Below, piece after piece: positions 2,823 through 10,172 of a stretch of 11,060 nucleotides of DNA (positions are counted from its first letter, which is position 1; every line of letters starts with the position of its first letter). Location of the stretch: positions 1-11,060 of the forward strand of contig JASLJL010000361.1 in assembly GCA_030152405.1 (NCBI GenBank). Reading direction: 5' to 3'. The notes beneath the pieces were generated by a model. That model was not told the DNA's origin and searched no databases. It was given only the letters and a program-made list of their open reading frames with translations. This DNA comes from Gordonia sp. (in: high G+C Gram-positive bacteria). Its GTDB lineage: Bacteria; Actinomycetota; Actinomycetes; Mycobacteriales; Mycobacteriaceae. A program made the position numbers and the translations under genes.

Positions 2823-3764
2823 ATGGCAGACCAGCTGCGGGCCCTTCTCGACGCCGTGCTCGACGAGAGCAACGACGGACTCGACGACATGGCGGCCGAC
2901 GTGTTCTCGTCGTCGTTCCACTTCGCCCGCACAGTCCGTGCAGGTGCGGGCGAGTCGCCGGTGGCGCTGCGCAAGCGAGTGACCCTCGAGCGCGCCGCAT
3001 GGGAACTGCAGCGCGGCGCGAGGGTGACCGACACCGCGTTCGCGGCCGGTTACGAGACCGTCGAAGGATTCAGCCGGGCCTTCTCCCGCGCCTACGGGCA
3101 CCCGCCGACGGCCATGCCCCCGATCGGACAGGCGGGCCACTGGCTGGCCGCGCCGAACGGCATCCATTTCCATTCGCCGACCGTCCTGTACGTCGACGCG
3201 AACGAGGGCGGCGTCGCCGAGGAGTCGGCGGGCGACGTGGTGTCCTTGCAGGTCAGGCACGACGTCGCCGACATCCGGGCGCTCCTCGACGCGGCTGCGG
3301 CGCTGTCGGACGCGGAACGCGCGGCGGTCCGACTGCCGGGAAGCGCCCCTCGGCACTGGGACGGCCCGGACGAATCGCTCGACCAGGTGCTGTGGCACCT
3401 GGTCGTGAGCAAGGAGCCGTGGCTGGCGACGGTGGAGGGCTCGGCGATGCCGGACATGACACCGGTGACCGCTCCCGACGATCTCCGCGGGCGGCACGAC
3501 GAGGTCTCCGGACGGTGGCTCGCGATGCTCCGCGACATCACTCGGCGGGACGCGTGGTCGGACTGGATCGTCGACGCTCTGTGCGAGCCGCCGGAGTCGT
3601 TCCGGTTGTCGCAGATCGTCGCGCACGAACTCACCTTCTCGACGCACCGCAGAATGCTCGCCCGGTGGATGCTCCGGGACGCCGGAATCGACACCGGCAC
3701 AGCAGAACTCGACCCCGACCCCATCATCTGGCAACGACGCACCACTGGAGGAACTCCCCGATGA
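2823..3764 (+). CDS. AraC-type HTH regulator fused to a DinB-like domain
   Basis: A 313-aa protein. Residues ~20-97 form an AraC-type double helix-turn-helix: LERAAWELQRG leads into VTDTAFAAGYETVEGFSRAFSR, then the family's YGHPP. Residues ~140-285 resemble a DinB/YfiT four-helix bundle, with a His in LWHLVV (H192) and Hs in VAHELTFSTH (H268, H275). The last two are seven residues apart rather than the usual four, so the DinB metal triad may be altered. Unlike classical AraC proteins the DNA-binding part is N-terminal, and the C-terminal domain may act as the sensor. Its stop overlaps the next start (ATGA), so it probably controls or works with the reductase it is coupled to. The inducer is unknown. 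Confidence 0.75.
   Translation: MADQLRALLDAVLDESNDGLDDMAADVFSSSFHFARTVRAGAGESPVALRKRVTLERAAWELQRGARVTDTAFAAGYETVEGFSRAFSRAYGHPPTAMPPIGQAGHWLAAPNGIHFHSPTVLYVDANEGGVAEESAGDVVSLQVRHDVADIRALLDAAAALSDAERAAVRLPGSAPRHWDGPDESLDQVLWHLVVSKEPWLATVEGSAMPDMTPVTAPDDLRGRHDEVSGRWLAMLRDITRRDAWSDWIVDALCEPPESFRLSQIVAHELTFSTHRRMLARWMLRDAGIDTGTAELDPDPIIWQRRTTGGTPR
3747..3752 (+). promoter_or_regulatory. Shine-Dalgarno GGAGGA for the RibD_C-type reductase
   Basis: A near-perfect GGAGGA lies 8 nt before the ATG at 3761, inside the 3' end of the regulator gene. It fixes the reductase start and implies strong translation from the shared mRNA. Confidence 0.75.
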
Positions 3765-6938: not shown

Positions 6939-7682
6939 CTAGGCGCCGGTGCGCGGATTGCGCGCGGAGATGAAGTAGCGGCGCCCGGTCGGATCGTCCA
7001 TCACGACGCGGTCGGCGTGCCGTTCGACGACCGTGGCGCCCCAGTCCTCGTGGCGCTCCACTTCGACGTCCAGATTGCTGGCGGCGACGTCGAGGTAGGC
7101 GGCGCCGAGACTGTCGTCGGACCGGACGAGCAGCACCTGAAGGGACAGATCCGGGTTGCGGGTCAGGGTGCGCCGGTTCAGCTCGCCGCGTTCAGTCTTT
7201 CTGGGGGCTTCCTGGCCGGTGAGCGCGGACCAGAAGGCAACCTCGGCGTCGAACTTGGCCGCGGGGACGTCGTAGCAGATCTGATCGATGATGCTGATCG
7301 TCCCGCCCGGCCAGCGGATCGGTCGGGCGCGACGCGTCTCGCCGGTCCATTCGACGAGGCAGAACCTGCCGCCCGCGGGGGACGCCATCACGCGATGCGT
7401 CCCGTAGTCGGCGAGCTCGCGGGCGCCGAGAGCGACAGCTTCAAGTGATGCGGCCGCGGGGTCGTCGACCGAGATGTCGAGGTGAGTGCCGCCGGGACCG
7501 GACTCGATGCGCTGCACGCGGAGGTGAGCGTCGCCGTTGAACGGATCGAGTGACGCGAACTCCTTCGAGGGTCCGCGCGGCGGGGAGACCGTGCTTCCGG
7601 AGATGGCACGCCAGAACGTGACTTCGGAGCCGAATTCGGCTGCGGGGAAGTCGAGGAACGCGGTCAACCAACGGACGTGCAC
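6939..7682 (-). CDS. VOC-superfamily (glyoxalase/bleomycin-resistance-like) protein, two tandem domains
   Basis: A 247-aa protein made of two similar halves (about 1-115 and 128-247) of the Glyoxalase_6 type. In half one AAEFGSEVTFWRAISG, GGTHLDISVDDP and ASPAGGRFCLVEW mark the fold. In half two AKFDAEVAFWSALTG, GAAYLDVAASN and DDPTGRRYFIS are the equivalents. Such proteins are metal-dependent enzymes or drug-binding proteins; I see no full set of metal ligands, so function is unknown. The GTG start is supported by a -10-like TAGAAT ending 6 nt upstream. It is a single gene, converging on the AlkZ-like gene with only 4 bp between the stops. Confidence 0.8.
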   Translation of the reverse strand: MHVRWLTAFLDFPAAEFGSEVTFWRAISGSTVSPPRGPSKEFASLDPFNGDAHLRVQRIESGPGGTHLDISVDDPAAASLEAVALGARELADYGTHRVMASPAGGRFCLVEWTGETRRARPIRWPGGTISIIDQICYDVPAAKFDAEVAFWSALTGQEAPRKTERGELNRRTLTRNPDLSLQVLLVRSDDSLGAAYLDVAASNLDVEVERHEDWGATVVERHADRVVMDDPTGRRYFISARNPRTGA

Positions 7683-7688
7683 GCGTCG

Positions 7689-7694
7689 ATTCTA
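7689..7694 (-). promoter_or_regulatory. -10 hexamer TAGAAT of a putative leaderless promoter (VOC gene)
   Basis: On the minus strand TAGAAT matches TATAAT at five of six positions and ends 6 nt before the GTG start. No Shine-Dalgarno is present. A small perfect hairpin (GCCTG/CAGGC, 7703-7715) covers part of the expected -35 area and could be a regulator site. Confidence 0.5.
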
Positions 7695-7948
7695 GAGGGG
7701 AAGCCTGCCTCAGGCGACGGCTGGCTAACTCACTCTAAAGTTTCAGTAGAGAGTTTTGTGCGGCGTGTTATCCCCAGGTTGTCCCCAACTGTGGATGTGG
7801 ATAACTGAATGAAATCTACTTGGCGGTAATGCATCCGGCGCGTGCCGATGGGGCGAATCGGGCGTGAAAACGAGATCGCGGTCACAGAAATCACCCCATT
7901 TTCCTAGGTCTATCCACAATTCCACAGGTTTGTCCACAGGGTGGCTGG

Positions 7949-7975
7949 AGGGTGTTGGTGAACTTCGAACACCCT
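7949..7975. repeat. Inverted repeat AGGGTGTT / AACACCCT
   Basis: Perfect 8-bp arms (7949-7956 and 7968-7975) around an 11-nt spacer. It lies just after the densest group of DnaA-like boxes. It may be a protein-binding site; nothing in it identifies the protein. Confidence 0.5.
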
Positions 7976-8010
7976 GTGAACCGACCGCCGAAGCGGGTCT
8001 GTGGAAATCG

Positions 8011-8028
8011 CTATGCAGGTCTGCATAG
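8011..8028. repeat. 18-bp palindrome CTATGCAG-GT-CTGCATAG (operator candidate)
   Basis: Perfect 8-bp arms with a 2-nt spacer, centred about 88 bp before the rhodanese start. The size and symmetry fit a dimeric regulator site. I do not recognise the regulator. Confidence 0.55.
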
Positions 8029-8094
8029 TTGCGGAGGTTGCTGAGAGTCGTCGAGTGCGGCACGAGCCCGACCACCCGAACTCGACAGGTGTGG

Positions 8095-8100
8095 AAAACT
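8095..8100 (+). promoter_or_regulatory. -10-like AAAACT of a putative leaderless rhodanese promoter
   Basis: AAAACT ends 7 nt before the GTG at 8108 and shares its first bases with a DnaA-like box (8090-8098). No -35 is evident at 17-18 nt and there is no Shine-Dalgarno. Confidence 0.3.
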
Positions 8101-8107
8101 GGTTTGC

Positions 8108-8446
8108 GTGAGCATGGGCGACATCGAGTCGGTAGGGGTCACCGAACTCCCCGACGACTTCACCGACGACCCGGACCGGATCCTCCTCGACGTCCGCGAG
8201 GGCTACGAGTGGGAGGAGGCGCATGTGCGCGGCGCCCTGCACATCCCGCTCGGCGAGGTGCCCGGTCGCATCGACGAGATCGATCTCGACCGGGAGCTGT
8301 TCGTCGTCTGCCGCACGAGCGGGCGGTCGTACCGGATCATGGAGTATCTGCTCAACCGGGGCATCGACGGAACCGTCGTCACCGGTGGCATGGTCGCGTG
8401 GATCGGCGCCGACAAGCCGGTCGACACCGGCTCGGACGCCCAGTGA
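8108..8446 (+). CDS. Single-domain rhodanese-like sulfurtransferase
   Basis: A 112-aa protein that is one rhodanese domain: ILLDVREGYEWEEAHVRGALHIPLGEV (residues 25-51) and the active-site loop VVCRTSGRS with catalytic C68, then GGMVAWIGADKPV. Rhodaneses carry a persulfide on this cysteine and hand sulfur to acceptors, or take part in redox signalling; the acceptor here is unknown. The GTG at 8108 is chosen because a -10-like hexamer lies 7 nt before it; an ATG at 8114 would remove only two residues and cannot be excluded. The stop overlaps the next GTG by 4 nt (GTGA), so it heads a tight operon with the DUF4328 and GDPD genes. Confidence 0.88.
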   Translation: MSMGDIESVGVTELPDDFTDDPDRILLDVREGYEWEEAHVRGALHIPLGEVPGRIDEIDLDRELFVVCRTSGRSYRIMEYLLNRGIDGTVVTGGMVAWIGADKPVDTGSDAQ

Positions 8447-9390
8447 GCGCCCCGGTGAATCTCGACATCTGCCCGTCCTGCCGCATTCAGGCGCCGCATC
8501 GTGAGGGGCGGACCGTGTGCCCCCGGTGCGGCGGAGCGCTGGTGCAGTCGGCGCCTGCTCGCCCCGCGCCTGCCCGGCCCGCACCGATCCGACGGCCCGC
8601 ATTGCGGTGGACGGCGCACCGGCCCGCCGAGGCGATGCCGCAGCGGAAGCCGCCACGCTCCCCGGCCCCGGGGCCGACACCGTCGTACGCCTACAACCCC
8701 GGGTGGGGACTCATCGACGCGCCGGCAGCACCGCGCGAGAGCACGGATGCGGTACCCGTCGCCACCGGCGCGTTGACCAGAGCGATGGAGCTCACCTGCA
8801 TGGTGCTCGGCGCGACCGCAGTGGTCCACGGGGTGCGCTACCTGATCGCCGTGATGAACCGGACGCGTCCGATCGCCGCGTGGGTCGACTGGCTCAGCAG
8901 CATCGCGGTGCTCGTGTTCGGAGTCATGTCGCTCATCGCGGCCGTCGTCGTCATCGTGGCGTTCGGCAGGTGGGTGCGGGAGATCCGGCTGCGCGCGTAC
9001 GCCCGGTCGGGCTACCTCGACCCTCGGCCGACCTGGTTCGTGTTCGCCGCGACGGTGACACCGCTGGTGAACGTCGTCGGCGCGCCCTGGCTGCTGCAGG
9101 AGGCCGCACGCATGGACACCGGAGACGACGGACGCGCAGCACGTGTCCGGATTCGTCTGGCGGTGGCGTGGGCGCTGGTGAACGCGGTCGCCGTGTGGGC
9201 CCTGGTCTACCGGATCGTCGCGTGGCGCACGGGATCGCTCCAAGTCGACGCCGACGCACTCGCGCTCGTCACCCTCTCGTTCGCCGTGTCCGCGGTGTTC
9301 GCCCGCTGGGCCGTCACGAGAGTGGAGCGACTCGCCGGTGTGGCGGCCGACGACGACGCCCGACCGGTCCGACGAATGGTGGCCGCATGA
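8443..9390 (+). CDS. Zinc-ribbon DUF4328 multi-pass membrane protein
   Basis: A 315-aa protein. The N-terminus has a zinc-ribbon pattern CPSC...CPRC (C10, C13, C26, C29), followed by a Pro/Ala/Arg-rich linker (about 35-80, with repeats of PAPAR) and about five membrane segments near 116-138, 151-175, 196-216, 238-260 and 270-290. WFVFAATVTPLVNVVGAPWLLQE is typical of DUF4328. The GTG start overlaps the rhodanese stop by 4 nt; a second GTG at 8455 would still keep the zinc ribbon. Its own stop overlaps the GDPD start (ATGA). From memory, Mtb Rv3843c, a membrane protein beside glpQ1 (Rv3842c), is the likely counterpart. Function is unknown; it may anchor or sense for the neighbouring phosphodiesterase. 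Confidence 0.8.
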   Translation: MSAPVNLDICPSCRIQAPHREGRTVCPRCGGALVQSAPARPAPARPAPIRRPALRWTAHRPAEAMPQRKPPRSPAPGPTPSYAYNPGWGLIDAPAAPRESTDAVPVATGALTRAMELTCMVLGATAVVHGVRYLIAVMNRTRPIAAWVDWLSSIAVLVFGVMSLIAAVVVIVAFGRWVREIRLRAYARSGYLDPRPTWFVFAATVTPLVNVVGAPWLLQEAARMDTGDDGRAARVRIRLAVAWALVNAVAVWALVYRIVAWRTGSLQVDADALALVTLSFAVSAVFARWAVTRVERLAGVAADDDARPVRRMVAA

Positions 9391-10172
9391 CAACTCGAGA
9401 CGTCTCGCGGTCCGGCAAGCCCGCTGTCGTCGCTCATCGCGGCGCGTCGGGCGAGATGGCCGAACACACGCTGGCCGCCTACGAACTGGCGCTGCAGCAG
9501 GGATCCGACGGCCTCGAATGCGATGTGCGGCTGACCGCCGACCACGAACTCGTGTGCATCCACGATCGGACCATCGAGCGCACGTCGGACGGGCTCGGCG
9601 CAGTCAGCGAGATGACGCTGGCGCAGCTCCGCGAGCACGACTTCGGCTCATGGCACAGCGGCACACCGGCGAAGGTCCTCACCCTGCGCGAGCTGCTGAC
9701 GCTGACACTCGACTGGCACCGTCCGGTGCGCCTCTTCATCGAGACGAAGCATCCGGTCCGGTACGGCAGTCTCGTCGAGACCGCGTTGCTGGAGATGCTG
9801 CACGAGTTCGGGGTGGCGTCGCCGCCGTCCGCCGATCACAGTCGGGCCGTCGTGATCTCGTTCTCGTCGGCGGGCGTCTGGCGAATCCGGCGGAGCGCCC
9901 CGATCCTGCCGACGATCCTGCTCGGGGACACCGCGCGGATCATCGGCGGCACCGCGGCCACCGCGGTCGGCGCCACGGGCGTAGGCCCGTCGGTCGAGAC
10001 TCTGCGCCTGCATCCCGATCTCGTCGACCGTGCGGCGGCCGCGGGCCGCGTCACCTACTGCTGGACGGTGGACGAGAAGCCGGACGTTCAACTCTGCGCG
10101 GACCTCGGTGTCCGGTGGGTCGCCACCAACCACCCGGCCCGAGTCCGGGACTGGCTCGTCACCGTCGACTGA
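9387..10172 (+). CDS. glpQ1: Glycerophosphodiester phosphodiesterase (GDPD)
   Basis: A 261-aa enzyme expected to cleave glycerophosphodiesters to glycerol-3-phosphate and an alcohol, recycling deacylated phospholipids. The GDPD core is complete: AHRGASGEMAEHTLAAY with catalytic H17, GLECDVRLTADHELVCIHD with metal ligands E44 and D46 and catalytic H59, FIETK with E119 and K121, and the closing YCWTVDEK...GVRWVATNHP. No signal peptide or lipobox is seen, so it should be cytoplasmic, unlike periplasmic GlpQ enzymes. It starts inside the stop of the DUF4328 gene (ATGA), so the two are co-translated. The name follows the mycobacterial neighbour pattern, not a search. Confidence 0.92.
   Translation: MTTRDVSRSGKPAVVAHRGASGEMAEHTLAAYELALQQGSDGLECDVRLTADHELVCIHDRTIERTSDGLGAVSEMTLAQLREHDFGSWHSGTPAKVLTLRELLTLTLDWHRPVRLFIETKHPVRYGSLVETALLEMLHEFGVASPPSADHSRAVVISFSSAGVWRIRRSAPILPTILLGDTARIIGGTAATAVGATGVGPSVETLRLHPDLVDRAAAAGRVTYCWTVDEKPDVQLCADLGVRWVATNHPARVRDWLVTVD

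What the first reader, a model, noticed from the sequence alone, without database searches (positions are those of the whole stretch)
7768..8098. DnaA-box cluster in an intergenic region with no dnaA or dnaN beside it
About nine 9-mers resemble DnaA boxes, two of them perfect (TTATCCACA, TTGTCCACA) and four with one change, with some at helical-turn spacing. In actinobacteria the known origin lies between dnaA and dnaN; here the flanks are a VOC gene and a rhodanese gene. Possible roles are a DnaA-titrating locus (like datA in E. coli), DnaA-controlled transcription of the flanking genes, or an accessory origin. In Mtb, as I recall, the sodA-glpQ1 area lies within roughly 100 kb of oriC, which would make titration plausible.
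Basis: partly seen in the sequence, partly recalled or inferred. Interest (0 to 1): 0.7.

Follow-up and report, generated by a model that had tools for sequence, protein, structure and literature searches.

The report
Conserved DnaA site outside the origin
This stretch of non-coding DNA in a Gordonia bacterium looks like a conserved docking site for DnaA, the protein that starts chromosome copying; it sits away from the copying start point, the matching place binds DnaA in mycobacteria, and its strict layout suggests a part in timing chromosome copying, which is still untested.

Summary
The 425-bp intergenic region 7683-8107 has 7 boxes within one change of TTNTCCACA, 3 perfect; 0 of 2000 shuffles reached 7. 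The window is a Gordonia close to G. malaquae. As a DnaA target the place is already known: it matches Rv3843c-RVnc0040, one of five regions bound by M. tuberculosis DnaA in vitro, with counterparts bound by M. smegmatis DnaA in vivo (PMC7738170). The other four regions also have box clusters in Gordonia relatives. New here: a three-box core occurs once per genome in 109 of 161 family genomes, 100 of them 1.03-2.29 kb upstream of the GDPD gene, and 72-536 kb from dnaA in the 22 genomes measured. The element keeps its inner spacing but points the other way relative to the operon in 17 Gordonia (8 by inference) than in 84 other loci. In 64 of 101 loci a CRP-like site lies 5' of the core, in 59 at one of two spacings a helical turn apart. 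Best reading: an origin-proximal DnaA-regulating nucleoprotein site, datA/DARS-like in role but not shown to be a member of either. Function unproven.

The parts
7683..8107 (.). Intergenic region that holds the DnaA-box element
   Evidence: Between VOC and rhodanese ORFs; GC 0.555 against 0.689 for the window; 7 boxes, 0 of 2000 shuffles
7768..7776 (+). Distal box 1 of the 11-bp pair, TTATCCCCA (one change), 142 bp before the core
   Evidence: boxes at -141 to -144 in both orientation classes
7779..7787 (+). Distal box 2 of the 11-bp pair, TTGTCCCCA (one change; perfect in L003, L004, L044), 131 bp before the core
   Evidence: boxes at -130 to -133 in both orientation classes
7796..7804 (-). 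Perfect box TTATCCACA (also perfect in L001, L003, L004, L044; one change in L002)
7871..7886 (+). Degenerate CRP-like site CGAGATCGCGGTCACA, 8 of 10 positions of TGTGAN6TCACA, 39 bp before the core
   Evidence: not significant on its own in the window, supported only by its conserved position in relatives
7910..7918 (+). Core box A, CTATCCACA
7918..7926 (+). Core box B, AATTCCACA (two changes; one base shorter spacing than the GTTTCCACA version common in relatives)
7930..7938 (+). Core box C, perfect TTGTCCACA, 12 bp after box B
8000..8008 (-). Opposing box ATTTCCACA, 70 bp after core box C
8090..8098 (-). Perfect box TTTTCCACA just before the rhodanese start (window, L001-L004)
8108..8446 (+). 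Rhodanese-domain gene, first gene downstream
8443..9390 (+). DUF4328 protein gene (positional match of Rv3843c)
   Evidence: equivalence to Rv3843c inferred from gene order and recall
9378..10172 (+). GDPD gene (glpQ1-like by recall), used as the synteny anchor
6942..7682 (-). VOC (Glyoxalase_6) gene; neighbour in the window, about 1 kb from the element in L005, L006, L009

Best explanation
The region is a chromosomal DnaA-binding element inherited in the family that holds Gordonia, Williamsia and Mycobacterium, and is the Gordonia counterpart of the mycobacterial DnaA site Rv3843c-RVnc0040. Shown by sequence: a core of three same-direction boxes; often an opposing box 55-70 bp on one side; in Gordonia and Williamsia-like loci a helically phased box pair 131/142 bp on the other side; in many loci a CRP-like site at a fixed, helically phased distance from the core. 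Inferred: DnaA fills the core and reaches the flanking boxes in one folded complex, helped in many lineages by a DNA-bending CRP-family protein. Because the element lies near oriC and is duplicated soon after initiation, the complex withdraws DnaA, or changes its nucleotide state, and so sets when oriC can fire again. This is a datA- or DARS-like role reached with a different architecture.
For: DnaA of M. tuberculosis (in vitro) binds Rv3843c-RVnc0040 and the M. smegmatis counterpart is a ChIP-seq peak. All five published regions have box clusters in Gordonia relatives: in front of dnaA and at oriC, dnaB and the ppiA/bPH_6/CrgA region, and this one. The core is found once per genome in 109 of 161 genomes, 0 hits for the reversed control; 100 of 105 genomes with core and GDPD have it 1.03-2.29 kb upstream of GDPD. 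The box pair at about -131/-142 is seen in 13-14 of 17 loci of the Gordonia orientation and in about 14-17 of 84 of the other, at the same offsets. CRP-like site within 110 bp 5' of the core in 64 of 101, against 10 of 101 on the 3' side and 3.3 expected from background density. In G175 and G190 the core lies 9.6 kb or a contig away from the rhodanese-GDPD operon. Within 233 kb of dnaA in 20 of 22 genomes. G. malaquae encodes a close homologue of the CRP/FNR protein of PDB 3h3u.
Against: No functional data: I found no replication phenotype for this site. The element mostly stays in front of the same operon, and in 46 loci a luciferase-like gene lies downstream of the core in the core's direction, 60-351 bp away in 32 of them, as a divergent promoter region would look. 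Seven loci (L065, L067, L071, L076, L079, L083, L084; at least L084 a Mycobacterium) lack the CRP-like site, and 37 of 101 elements have none at two mismatches or fewer. The window's own CRP-like site is degenerate; about 2.8 such matches per window are expected by chance. Ten of 111 loci have no core within 4 mismatches. The counts come from related genomes and are not independent.
Confidence: 0.5

Rival explanations
1. The element is a transcriptional control region: DnaA, in many lineages with CRP, tunes the rhodanese-DUF4328-GDPD operon, or a divergent gene or small RNA, with the cell cycle.
For: The element keeps its place 1.03-2.29 kb upstream of GDPD in 100 of 105 genomes. In the window and L001-L004 a box lies just before the rhodanese start. 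In M. tuberculosis a small RNA, MTS2975, lower in stationary phase, lies between Rv3843c and Rv3844. In 46 loci a luciferase-like gene follows the core in the same direction (46 of 46), at 60-351 bp in 32.
Against: The element points the other way relative to the operon in 17 Gordonia than in 84 other loci while its inner geometry is kept. No single gene is always beside it: no rhodanese hit in 29 of 120 loci scanned, among them L084 (Mycobacterium); no luciferase-like hit in the 8 named and 8 inferred Gordonia loci; the distance to the luciferase-like gene varies from 60 to 3112 bp; in G175 and G190 the core lies apart from the operon. The main text of PMC7738170 names Rv3843c only at the binding site, with no statement of regulation.
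Confidence: 0.32
2. Simple titration: the boxes act only as a passive sponge and their arrangement has no further meaning.
For: Several strong boxes near the origin would be enough in principle; G. malaquae has only 37 exact TTRTCCACA sites in its genome, against 12 for the reversed pattern.
Against: A sponge needs no fixed spacing, yet the three-box core, the 11-bp pair and its offset recur at the same spacing.
Confidence: 0.12
3. An accessory or relict replication origin.
For: In G. malaquae exact boxes cluster here and at oriC; the 3-mismatch core hit of one genome, G150, is at its own dnaA/oriC.
Against: No AT-rich stretch like that of oriC: lowest 40-bp GC is 0.375 here against 0.275 in the G. 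malaquae dnaA-dnaN region, which also has repeated CTA triplets before an AT-rich run. None of the ten window proteins scanned is an initiator or helicase.
Confidence: 0.04

Closest known systems
Mycobacterial DnaA-binding region Rv3843c-RVnc0040 (PMC7738170; passages and section 9 read)
   Same: Matching genomic place, upstream of the Rv3843c-like (DUF4328) and GDPD genes near sodA; box cluster; one of five DnaA regions whose counterparts exist as clusters in Gordonia relatives
   Different: In Gordonia the element is inverted relative to the operon, a rhodanese gene is in between, the core is one base shorter in the window and near relatives, and a CRP-like site is present; DnaA binding in Gordonia is untested
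datA of E. coli (PMC4585315, passages)
   Same: Non-coding DnaA-box locus outside oriC, with a site for a DNA-bending protein between boxes (IHF in datA; a CRP-like site here)
   Different: Different box layout and partner; effect on DnaA-ATP untested; no sequence or positional relation was looked for
DARS1/DARS2 of E. coli (PMC4585315 and PMC8682772, passages)
   Same: Core of three DnaA boxes; accessory DNA-binding proteins (IHF, Fis) at DARS2
   Different: DARS boxes I and II oppose each other; the three core boxes here point the same way
DnaA-box clusters of Streptomyces and of Bacillus subtilis (recalled, no text seen)
   Same: DnaA-box clusters outside oriC thought to modulate initiation
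   Different: Recalled only, not compared here

Membership tests
Rv3843c-RVnc0040 type DnaA site | Lies upstream of the Rv3843c-like (DUF4328)-GDPD genes near sodA | tested here: met
   naming of Rv3842c/Rv3843c by recall, gene order
Rv3843c-RVnc0040 type DnaA site | Contains the shared three-box core | tested here: met
   Core with 0 mismatches in L084, a Mycobacterium by SodA (about 7 differences in 204 residues from PDB 1ids, organism recalled), and in L076, L079, L083; 2 mismatches and one base shorter in the window. The M. tuberculosis and M. smegmatis sequences themselves were not seen
Rv3843c-RVnc0040 type DnaA site | Bound by DnaA | not testable with these tools
   Shown for two mycobacteria, not for Gordonia
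datA | DnaA-box cluster outside oriC | tested here: met
   72-536 kb from dnaA in 22 relatives
datA | IHF site between essential DnaA boxes | not tested
   No IHF consensus scan was made; a CRP-like site occupies a comparable place
datA | Promotes hydrolysis of DnaA-bound ATP | not testable with these tools
   Needs biochemistry
DARS | Three-box core with boxes I and II in opposing directions | tested here: not met
   Core boxes share one direction; DARS arrangement
oriC | Between dnaA and dnaN | tested here: not met
   Flanks are VOC and rhodanese; dnaA-dnaN lies elsewhere in G. malaquae and dnaA elsewhere in 22 relatives
oriC | AT-rich unwinding element | tested here: not met
   Composition only, against one origin
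CRP site | TGTGAN6TCACA | tested here: inconclusive
   8 of 10 positions in the window, not significant alone; 64 of 101 elements have 8 or more of 10 on the 5' side of the core, 59 at two spacings

The most novel reading that the evidence does not exclude
Gordonia, Williamsia and further genera of their family have a datA/DARS-type locus for the initiator DnaA that is built around CRP instead of IHF: cAMP-CRP bends the DNA next to a three-box DnaA core at a fixed helical phase, so carbon or energy status gates DnaA availability and the timing of chromosome replication. Mycobacterium keeps the DnaA core but appears to lack the CRP gate.
Probability: 0.3. Interest if true: 0.85.

Novelty: new variant of a known kind. 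Interest (0 to 1): 0.6.

Why it matters
To my knowledge (recalled) no locus of the datA or DARS kind has been established in the mycobacterial family, and how these bacteria restrain DnaA is open. A DnaA site reported as an unexplained peak in two mycobacteria turns out to match a once-per-genome, origin-proximal element with a strict architecture and, in many loci, a companion CRP-like site. That gives a defined piece of DNA to delete, re-space or move in a harmless Gordonia or Rhodococcus strain, and a concrete hypothesis that links cAMP signalling to replication timing.

Tried and rejected
Chance cluster: rejected. Accessory origin: disfavoured. Known RNA element: the Rfam scan of the window at E up to 5 gave two hits, both below their gathering scores and both outside the region. 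Tie to the VOC gene: rejected, because in L005, L006 and L009 the element lies about 1 kb from VOC but still in front of the rhodanese gene. Of the nine core genomes not counted as next to GDPD: G170, G154 and G182 have a more distant GDPD beside the core that fell below my E-value cut, G121 has the core beside a rhodanese gene near a contig end, G010 is at a contig start, G175 and G190 have the core beside a luciferase-like gene but away from the operon, G150 is at its own dnaA/oriC, and G194 could not be placed. The wider pattern YTNTCCMCA was hardly enriched in G. malaquae (172 sites against 153 for the reversed control; only the first places were listed), and exact boxes are not enriched overall in some relatives (23 against 27 in G005, 24 against 27 in G006, 19 against 28 in G009); it is the clustering that stands out. 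Paper searches were weakened because the term datA also matches the word data, and the stem mycobacter could not match as a whole word. No IHF scan, tree or structure prediction was made.

Counts dropped: 10 of 111 loci without a core at 4 mismatches or fewer were left out of the geometry and CRP counts; one of them, L093 (G190), has its core elsewhere. The 22 genomes were picked because the element lies on a long contig (0.8 Mb or more), not at random; for G084 and G176 the element position was estimated from the GDPD gene. Only 100 regions of the 126 GDPD genomes were fetched for the geometry counts.

Full report
What is there. The window comes from a Gordonia: the VOC protein is 87% identical to its counterparts in G. 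malaquae and G. spumicola, and the ten loci found are eight Gordonia and two Williamsia. Gene order in the window is ABC transporter and CbiQ genes, HTH_18-DinB_2, sodA, msrA, an AlkZ-like gene, VOC, the intergenic region, then rhodanese, DUF4328 and GDPD. In the intergenic region 7683-8107 I count 7 boxes within one change of TTNTCCACA, three perfect, plus three with two changes. The whole 11-kb window has one more at one change. None of 2000 dinucleotide shuffles of the region reached 7; the highest was 4. In stretches of about 20 kb (13.8 kb in one) around the same place in the ten relatives, this spot is the densest in each, with 4-9 boxes per 425 bp against at most 2 elsewhere.

How rare such clusters are. 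The window's own genome is not held, so I used G. malaquae. It has 37 exact TTRTCCACA sites in 4.5 Mb, against 12 for the reversed pattern. Taking two or more within 250 bp, they form five clusters: in front of dnaA, the dnaA-dnaN origin, a pair upstream of an ECF sigma gene about 10 kb from dnaA, this region, and a pair 14 bp apart in front of an ORF without a Pfam match. In the five further genomes whose site lists were complete (G003, G005, G006, G007, G009) this locus again holds 2-3 exact boxes within 250 bp; the lists of the other four (G002, G004, G008, G010) were cut or not shown.

It is a known DnaA site elsewhere. Hicks et al. 2020 (PMC7738170; passages and section 9 read) found five regions highly enriched with M. 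[quoted passage not shown] They found homologs of the same five by ChIP-seq in M. [quoted passage not shown] Rv3843c is, by gene order and recall, the DUF4328 gene next to glpQ1, so the window holds the counterpart of Rv3843c-RVnc0040. In Gordonia relatives the other four regions also carry box clusters: in front of dnaA and at oriC (L011; in G002 and G003 beside the dnaA), in front of dnaB (L104, PF00772 and PF03796), and the ppiA / bPH_6 / CrgA region that corresponds to Rv0010c-Rv0011c (L105, L106, L109). A search for papers with both Rv3843c and DnaA gave three, of which only Hicks et al. treats DnaA binding there in what I saw; RVnc0040 occurs in that paper alone. One of the other two (PMC8613195, passages only) lists dnaA, Rv0010c and Rv3843c among candidate genes in an isoniazid screen, without tying the last to DnaA in the passages I saw. 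The third (PMC3207917, passages only) reports a small RNA, MTS2975, between Rv3843c and Rv3844, lower in stationary phase.

Conservation. I used the GDPD protein as anchor in 161 genomes of the family; 126 have it at E 1e-75 or better. A three-box core, YTATCCACAGTTTCCACANNNTNATCCACA with up to 3 mismatches, occurs in 109 of 161 genomes, exactly once in each, with no hit for the reversed control. Of the 105 genomes with both, 100 have the core 1.03-2.29 kb upstream of GDPD. Of the nine others, three (G170, G154, G182) have a more distant GDPD beside it, G121 has a rhodanese gene beside it near a contig end, G010 (Williamsia) is at a contig start, G175 and G190 have the core beside a luciferase-like gene and about 2.4 kb from sodA but away from the rhodanese-GDPD operon, G150 is at its own dnaA/oriC, and G194 could not be placed. 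Twenty-one GDPD genomes have no core at 3 mismatches; among them are G. malaquae and other Gordonia, which match a form with one base less between the first two boxes. At order level, 41 of 200 genomes have a match.

Architecture. The core is three boxes in one direction, the first two abutting (overlapping by one base in the window) and the third 12 bp after the second. In Gordonia and Williamsia-like loci a pair of boxes 11 bp apart lies about 131 and 142 bp on the 5' side: 13-14 of 17 loci of the Gordonia orientation and about 14-17 of the 84 others, at the same offsets. In the genome-wide set the figures are 6 same and 94 opposite, the six being among those Gordonia-like genomes. So the element turned round relative to the operon in the Gordonia lineage and kept its inner spacing.

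Neighbours. No rhodanese hit was found in 29 of 120 loci scanned. A luciferase-like gene follows the core in the core's direction in 46 of 46 loci where both were found, 60-351 bp away in 32 and 0.96-3.1 kb away in 14; none of the eight named or eight inferred Gordonia loci has a hit. So the usual arrangement looks like a divergent intergenic region between that gene and the rhodanese-GDPD operon, with either neighbour missing or moved in some lineages.

A companion site. The alignment showed a conserved GTGAC-N5-TCAC between the pair and the core. It matches TGTGAN6TCACA, the palindrome given for E. coli CRP in PMC4117774 (passage). With two or fewer mismatches in ten, 64 of 101 elements have it within 110 bp 5' of the core, against 10 of 101 in an equal stretch on the 3' side and about 3 expected from its density in 60 whole loci (0.033 per 110 bp). 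Its start lies 28-30 bp before the core in 28, 37-40 bp in 31, 49 and 60 bp in one each, and 65 bp in three weaker cases. The two main classes differ by about 10 bp, one helical turn; closely related genomes make these counts non-independent. Seven loci (L065, L067, L071, L076, L079, L083, L084) lack it at 3 mismatches or fewer; L084 is a Mycobacterium by its SodA. In the window it is CGAGATCGCGGTCACA, no more than chance taken alone. G. malaquae encodes a 224-residue CRP-family protein that aligns end to end with PDB 3h3u at 450.7 bits (M. tuberculosis origin of 3h3u recalled).

Position on the chromosome. In 22 genomes picked for long contigs, dnaA and the element are 72-536 kb apart, median 155 kb, 20 within 233 kb; 19 lie on the dnaN side and 3 on the rpmH side.

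Mechanism. Shown by sequence: box cluster, recurring spacing, inversion as a unit, companion site in many loci, single copy, origin-proximal place. Shown by others in mycobacteria: DnaA binding. Inferred: a folded DnaA complex, often with CRP, that acts on DnaA itself rather than on a neighbouring promoter. The inversion, the changing neighbours and the two displaced cases favour an effect on DnaA in trans; the usual divergent intergenic place and the small RNA in M. tuberculosis keep a promoter role alive. An origin is unlikely because the region has no AT-rich stretch like that of the G. malaquae origin. I put the DnaA-regulating reading at 0.5 and transcriptional control at 0.32.

Known or new. 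DnaA binding at this genomic place is known in two mycobacteria. The family-wide architecture, the inversion in Gordonia and the CRP-like companion were not described in the passages that I could read; the searches behind that statement were made, in an open-access library only. It works like datA or DARS at most by analogy: the DARS core arrangement was tested and not met, and datA's biochemical activity could not be tested.

Noticed in passing
window 8011-8028: Palindrome CTATGCAGGTCTGCATAG right after the opposing box; similar palindromes recur at this place in most of the aligned Gordonia loci but not in the Williamsia-like ones; possibly an operator of the rhodanese operon.
   Followed up: partly
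L011 2190-2240 and L107 2464-2514; also G002:C2:712761-712811: Pair of perfect DnaA boxes 42 bp apart at the front of an ECF sigma factor gene about 10 kb from dnaA (Pfam for L011, by eye for L107); not among the five published mycobacterial regions.
   Followed up: partly
L012 2397-2419: Two perfect inverted DnaA boxes 14 bp apart in G. malaquae, in front of a 319-aa ORF without a Pfam match.
   Followed up: partly
window 2823-3764: One ORF joins an AraC-type HTH_18 domain to a DinB_2 domain.
   Followed up: no
L104 2719-4932: dnaB ORF of 737 aa with DnaB_C matched in two stretches, which may mean an intein or other insert.
   Followed up: no
G301:C1:5887, G093:C1:5883 and similar hits; L158 (G150): Core-like triples at 3 mismatches near the start of some contigs of other genomes of the order, and at oriC of G150; the same box triple may be used at origins there.
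   Followed up: partly
L151 (G175) and L152 (G190): The core stays beside a luciferase-like gene while the rhodanese-GDPD operon lies 9.6 kb away or on another contig.
   Followed up: partly
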